A stretch of DNA of 64,000 nt, from positions 1-64,000 of the forward strand of contig NZ_JAAGKO020000009.1 of assembly GCF_027947535.2 (NCBI RefSeq), in the 5' to 3' direction. The notes beneath the pieces are model-generated. The model had not been told where the DNA came from and made no database searches. It was given only the letters and a program-made list of their open reading frames with translations. How positions within the stretch are numbered: the first letter of the stretch is position 1; each line of letters begins with the position of its first letter. The position numbers and the translations under genes are program-made. Shown here piece after piece: positions 24,142-24,178 of this stretch. This DNA comes from Streptantibioticus silvisoli. GTDB lineage: Bacteria > Actinomycetota > Actinomycetes > Streptomycetales > Streptomycetaceae.

Positions 24142-24178
24142 GGGGGGGGGGGGGGGGGGGGGGGGGGGGGGGGGGGGG
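24142..24178. repeat. Homopolymer of 37 G
   Basis: An uninterrupted G37 lies between cseC and the convergent exporter gene. GGGAACCGCCGG stands just left of the run at 24123-24134 and GGGGAACCGCCGG is repeated at its right end. In DNA it could fold as G-quadruplex. Length in the assembly may be uncertain, since such tracts are hard to read. Confidence 0.9.

What the first reader, a model, noticed from the sequence alone, without database searches (positions are those of the whole stretch)
24142..24178. Run of 37 G between cseC and an exporter gene
A perfect G37 is rare in any chromosome. It is bordered by GGGAACCGCCGG on both sides, which suggests growth by slippage from a repeat. It may form G-quadruplexes and block polymerases, ending both genes. 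It could change length between cells, or be an assembly error.
Basis: seen in the sequence. Interest (0 to 1): 0.65.

Follow-up and report, generated by a model that had tools for sequence, protein, structure and literature searches.

The report
Overgrown G-run between two genes
A stretch of 37 G's between a stress-sensor gene and a drug-exporter gene in a Streptomyces relative is most likely a real, unstable run that grew by copying slips in a bacterium without the usual repair of such slips; similar runs occur in about four in ten related genomes, so it is notable but probably not a new device.

Summary
G37 is exactly at 24142-24178; the next longest G or C run in the window is 7. It lies in the 187-nt gap between convergent genes cseC (sigE-cseA-cseB-cseC cluster) and a DHA2-type MFS exporter. 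Both genes are intact. About 27 related genomes keep the same convergent pair with a normal gap and no long run, so the run is lineage-specific and not a misjoin. It is not unique: 161 of 395 Streptomycetaceae genomes hold a G20+ run, several in contigs of 6-9 Mb. In a discovery set and a fresh set of 112 interior tracts, 79% were intergenic (controls 15-18%) and 21% convergent (controls about 1.8%). The genome has NucS but no MutS; NucS does not repair indels. Best explanation: replication slippage grew a short G-run, probably in the 3' arm of a terminator hairpin, where growth is tolerated. Exact length is uncertain and probably variable. Two-colour Illumina poly-G is unlikely, because unique sequence resumes after the G's and tracts at this genome's contig ends point the wrong way in 12 of 14 cases. 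Growth from the flanking 12-mer repeat is not generally supported. A termination role is possible but untested. Long reads would settle it.

The parts
24142..24178 (+). G37 mononucleotide tract (C37 on the - strand), intergenic, 42 nt after the cseC stop and 108 nt from the exporter's stop
24129..24147 (+). candidate remnant of the convergent terminator hairpin: CCGCCGG-cgcgg-CCGGGGG, 6 of 7 pairs; the first G's of the tract are the end of its 3' arm
   Evidence: fold; relatives carry hairpins such as GGCCCCCGGC...GCCGGGGGCC in the same gap; inference
24123..24134 (+). left copy of the direct repeat GGGAACCGCCGG
24176..24187 (+). right copy of GGGAACCGCCGG (first three G belong to the tract)
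24180..24221 (+). two copies of ACCGCCGGGGGTG, 29 nt apart (24180 and 24209): local degenerate tandem repeat with G5 runs
22837..24099 (+). cseC, sensor histidine kinase, intact (420 aa)
   Evidence: NF041732 E 2e-185, 617 bits, below its 700-bit cut-off but best match over nearly full length; HAMP-HisKA-HATPase
22138..22830 (+). cseB response regulator
   Evidence: NF041733 380.7 bits, over cut-off 350
20983..21579 (+). sigE-family ECF sigma factor
   Evidence: TIGR02983 196 bits, over cut-off
24287..25885 (-). DHA2-family MFS exporter, intact (532 aa), convergent with cseC
   Evidence: TIGR00711 294 bits, over cut-off

Best explanation
The tract is a real, slippage-expanded G:C homopolymer. 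A short G-run in the gap between cseC and the exporter, probably the G5-like 3' arm of the terminator hairpin, passed the length at which DNA polymerase slips often. Streptomycetaceae lack MutS/MutL and NucS does not correct indels, so slips persist; the gap holds no coding sequence and probably no promoter, so a long run is tolerated. The tract should vary in length between cells and the assembled 37 is approximate. Shown: the tract, its context, absence of a long run in relatives, no MutS found, NucS present, family-wide placement of similar tracts. Inferred: slippage as the motor, the hairpin-arm seed, length variation, no selected function. As a side effect the cseC transcript, which would carry the G's, may fold a quadruplex and stop or pause polymerase.
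For: Run-length tail fits a random expectation up to about 10 nt and departs hugely above 20. No MutS (PF01624: 0 hits; 11 of 14 control genomes positive); NucS present; NucS loss did not considerably affect indels in S. ambofaciens (PMC11109965). G8 in S. coelicolor pglX gains and loses bases (PMC4365076). About 27 relatives keep cseC-exporter convergence with gaps of 21-233 nt and runs of 6 or less. Family tracts: intergenic 51/62 and 37/50, convergent 12/62 and 11/50 against 1.7-1.8%; same picture in 27 tracts on contigs over 5 Mb (convergent 6, in-gene 5). Orthologous convergent site with G23 in G194 and none in G172. Hairpin association: 4 of 88 tracts in loop or arm of a perfect stem of 9+ (control 0.7%, p 0.003), best a C24 in the loop of a 17-bp terminator stem.
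Against: No reads could be examined; G000 is a 130-contig draft and many long tracts lie at its contig ends. The genus has no other held genome, so recent change at this very site is not shown. The hairpin-arm seed rests on a 6-of-7 stem and few strong cases. Slippage alone does not explain the 7-nt insert or the flanking 12-mer repeat.
Confidence: 0.74

Rival explanations
1. Sequencing or assembly artefact: poly-G from two-colour Illumina dark cycles, or a misjoin of two contigs through poly-G ends.
For: Such artefacts are common in the family: G129 has adapter GATCGGAAGAGCGTC followed by poly-G at a contig end, G086 has a G1500 run, and some genomes hold dozens of tracts. G000 has about 14 G/C10+ tracts within about 200 nt of contig ends.
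Against: Dark cycles do not recover within a read; here unique sequence resumes after the G's on the same strand. A join of two dark-cycle ends would read G-run then C-run. In G000 the outward reading at contig ends is C in 12 of 14 cases (p 0.013), opposite to the dark-cycle signature. The flanking genes are in the order and spacing of relatives. Artefacts would not favour convergent gaps in contigs over 5 Mb.
Confidence: 0.13
2. Selected terminator or insulator: the G tract, through RNA or RNA:DNA quadruplexes, ends cseC transcription, with length tuning read-through into the exporter's antisense.
For: G's lie on the non-template strand of cseC 42 nt after its stop. The model energy of the 94-nt 3' end changes from -39.6 to -145.5 kcal/mol when quadruplexes are allowed. 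A mitochondrial G-tract (CSB 2) ends transcription through a hybrid quadruplex, more so when longer (PMC5027508). Tracts are 12-fold enriched in convergent gaps.
Against: Not conserved: relatives use ordinary hairpins at this gap. Strand preference relative to genes was 22 C to 8 G in the first set but 10 to 9 in the fresh set, so no consistent orientation. The enrichment is also expected from tolerance and hairpin seeds.
Confidence: 0.1
3. Contingency (phase-variation) locus controlling CseC or the exporter.
For: Poly-G contingency tracts exist in actinobacteria: pglX (PMC4365076) and Bifidobacterium pili (PMC9187656).
Against: The tract is outside both reading frames and at their 3' ends, so it cannot switch frame or promoter spacing; both genes are intact.
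Confidence: 0.03

Closest known systems
pglX G-tract of Streptomyces coelicolor (phase variation of phage growth limitation; PMC4365076)
   Same: G homopolymer in a streptomycete; gains and loses G's
   Different: pglX tract is G8 and coding, switching a frame; this one is 37 and intergenic
Bifidobacterium breve pilus G-tracts (PMC9187656)
   Same: Actinobacterial G-tract changing length by replication slippage
   Different: Intragenic and functionally used
Human mitochondrial CSB 2 G-tract (PMC5027508)
   Same: G's on the non-template strand, variable length, could end transcription by a hybrid quadruplex
   Different: Functional in mitochondria; function here untested and the tract not conserved
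Two-colour Illumina poly-G artefact
   Same: Long poly-G in draft assemblies, often at contig ends
   Different: Here flanked by unique, syntenic sequence; contig-end tracts of this genome mostly read C outward

Membership tests
Slippage-prone mononucleotide G:C tract (microsatellite) | Pure single-base run far above the chance length | tested here: met
   37 nt; expectation for 37 or more about 1e-12 per genome
Slippage-prone mononucleotide G:C tract (microsatellite) | Length differs between individuals or close relatives | tested here: inconclusive
   Absent in 80 relatives' cseC regions but none is congeneric; no isolates or reads. Shown at another family locus
Slippage-prone mononucleotide G:C tract (microsatellite) | Host lacks repair of slipped strands | tested here: met
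   No MutS hit in a 98%-complete genome; NucS present; NucS has little effect on indels (PMC11109965)
Phase-variable contingency locus | Tract in a reading frame or promoter so that length changes expression | tested here: not met
   Between the stop codons of two convergent genes; no promoter-like site by a sigma-70 consensus scan that may miss streptomycete promoters
Two-colour dark-cycle poly-G artefact | Run at a read or contig end, G in the outward direction, no unique sequence after it | tested here: not met
   Interior of a 191-kb contig; syntenic flanks; outward C at 12 of 14 contig-end tracts of the genome
Intrinsic terminator | Stable stem followed by a T-run | tested here: not met
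   0 terminator-like sites in 24000-24400; a partial GC-rich stem without T-run is present
Quadruplex-dependent terminator | G-run causes termination in transcription assays | not testable with these tools
   Energy model only

The most novel reading that the evidence does not exclude
Long G:C homopolymers are a recurrent, unrecognised class of hypermutable element in Streptomycetaceae: they grow out of convergent terminator hairpins and act as length-tunable roadblocks between gene ends, making 3'-end formation vary from cell to cell.
Probability: 0.13. Interest if true: 0.62.

Novelty: new member of a known kind. Interest (0 to 1): 0.33.

Why it matters
If the tracts are real, actinobacteria without MutS carry hypermutable G-runs of tens of bases mostly in gene gaps, especially where two genes end face to face. 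That would give ready-made loci for measuring slippage without MutS, would help explain some contig breaks in Streptomyces drafts, and would raise the question whether terminators are mutational hot spots. For this single locus the likely effect is small.

Tried and rejected
(2) Congeneric comparison of the site: no other genome of the genus is held. (3) Preferred strand relative to genes: 22 C to 8 G in the first set, 10 to 9 in the fresh set with the test stated beforehand: dropped. (4) Flanking direct repeats as the motor: longest shared word 9 nt outside the tract, within control range; near-adjacent repeats score at about the 1.4% level for this site but are barely enriched over 112 tracts, p 0.047, driven by low-complexity flanks: not adopted. 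(5) Coincidence by base composition: excluded. (7) Literature searches for long poly-G tracts in Streptomyces found no description in the open library; absence there is not proof. (8) The first alignment of G194 with G172 used the wrong strand and was redone.

Full report
What is there. The window holds one perfect run of 37 G at 24142-24178. No other G run exceeds 6 and no C run exceeds 7 in 64 kb. The window is part of contig C120 (191 kb) of a 130-contig, 8.70-Mb draft genome of a Streptomycetaceae member (family name inferred from the relatives). The tract lies between two stop codons: cseC ends at 24099 on the + strand and a DHA2-type MFS exporter (24287-25885) ends towards it on the - strand. 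The genes upstream are a SigE-family sigma factor, an ORF in the cseA position (no family match) and CseB. Both neighbours of the tract are intact. The pair GGGAACCGCCGG is present at 24123 and 24176 as described, the right copy sharing three G's with the tract; a related 13-mer repeats 29 nt apart just downstream.

Is it chance? In about 141 kb of this genome, G/C runs in gaps fall off geometrically (continuation probability 0.32). Extrapolation to the genome's gaps gives about 28 runs of 10 or more, close to the roughly 30 found. It gives 0.0003 runs of 20 or more, whereas at least five are found (C120, C87, C16, C18, C105). So there are two populations: ordinary short runs and a few that escaped to great length.

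Is it an artefact? Poly-G artefacts exist in this family's assemblies: G129 shows an Illumina adapter followed by poly-G at a contig end, and G086 has 1500 G's in a row. Dark-cycle poly-G comes at the 3' end of reads, so at a contig end it must read G outward. In this genome 12 of 14 contig-end tracts read C outward (p 0.013). This is what is expected if reads enter real tracts from the C-reporting side and fail from the G side (inference). The tract in question is interior and followed by unique sequence on the same strand, which dark cycles cannot produce. A misjoin is unlikely: about 27 relatives have the same convergent cseC-exporter pair with 21-233 nt between the stops, and the window has 187 nt, or 150 without the tract. 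The exact number 37 remains uncertain, as for any long homopolymer.

Is it unique? No. A G20+ run occurs in 161 of 395 Streptomycetaceae genomes, including contigs of 6-9 Mb. Outside the family 18 of 190 genomes of the phylum have one, but those genomes are smaller. I fetched 112 interior tracts in two sets and called genes around them with a codon-usage caller that recovered the window's known genes. First set (62; threshold 10 in the own genome, 20 elsewhere): 51 intergenic, 12 convergent; control positions 18% and 1.7%. Second set (50, test stated beforehand): 37 intergenic or at an edge, 11 convergent; controls 15% and 1.8% (p 2e-20 and 1e-9). Among intergenic tracts, 26% are convergent against 12% expected (p 1e-4). 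The 27 tracts on contigs over 5 Mb show the same (6 convergent, 5 in genes). A strand preference seen in the first set failed in the second and is withdrawn.

How did it arise? The genome has no MutS domain hit and has NucS. In Streptomyces ambofaciens loss of NucS raised base substitutions 34-fold but did not considerably change indels (PMC11109965). In S. coelicolor a G8 run in pglX gains and loses bases and is held responsible for switching of phage resistance (PMC4365076); Bifidobacterium G-tracts also slip (PMC9187656). Slipped strands in G-runs are therefore probably not efficiently repaired here. The tract is probably not old: none of 80 relatives' cseC regions has a run above 9. At another convergent site of the family, G194 has G23 where its 86%-identical ortholog in G172 has nothing, which shows gain or loss within the family.

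Why there? Relatives carry GC-rich hairpins with C4-5/G4-5 arms between cseC and the exporter. In the window the partial hairpin CCGCCGG-cgcgg-CCGGGGG ends in the first G's of the tract, so the tract may have grown from a terminator arm. In support, 4 of 88 intergenic tracts sit in the loop or arm of a perfect stem of 9 or more pairs (0.7% of controls; p 0.003), most clearly a C24 in the loop of a 17-bp terminator stem in G372. Most tracts show no such stem, so this is a contributing, not general, explanation. Gaps between gene ends also lack coding sequence and usually promoters, so tolerance alone could give the same placement.

What does it do? Most likely nothing selected. The cseC transcript would carry G37 shortly after its stop, and energy models predict stacked quadruplexes; a mitochondrial G-tract ends transcription this way (PMC5027508). 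Termination of cseC is therefore plausible as a side effect. It cannot work as a frame or promoter switch, because it lies outside both genes at their 3' ends.

Verdict. It is a striking but known kind of element, and the family-wide placement is the more interesting result.

Noticed in passing
L279 (G372:C1:6238900-6244900) 2974-2997: C24 sits exactly in the loop of a 17-bp convergent terminator stem, a clear case of a homopolymer inside a terminator.
   Followed up: partly
L158 (G086:C1, from 1347314): A run of 1500 G inside a 7.8-Mb contig of another streptomycete, almost certainly an assembly or gap-filling artefact.
   Followed up: no
L153 (G129:C9 end): Illumina adapter sequence GATCGGAAGAGCGTC followed by poly-G at a contig end: unremoved adapter in a public assembly.
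   Followed up: no
L160 (G080:C1:2657123-2660143): Several hundred bases of alternating long G and C blocks in an 8-Mb contig; real palindromic expansion or artefact.
   Followed up: no
L002 (G000:C16:6883-6984) and L010 (G000:C18:6676-6763): Contigs of the window's own genome end in C102 and in an interrupted G23/G53/G10 run; assembly breaks at long homopolymers.
   Followed up: partly
L352 (G194) against L353 (G172): Convergent gene pair abutting or overlapping in G172; G194 has 31 extra bases including G23 between the stop codons, with a short imperfect repeat on both sides.
   Followed up: partly
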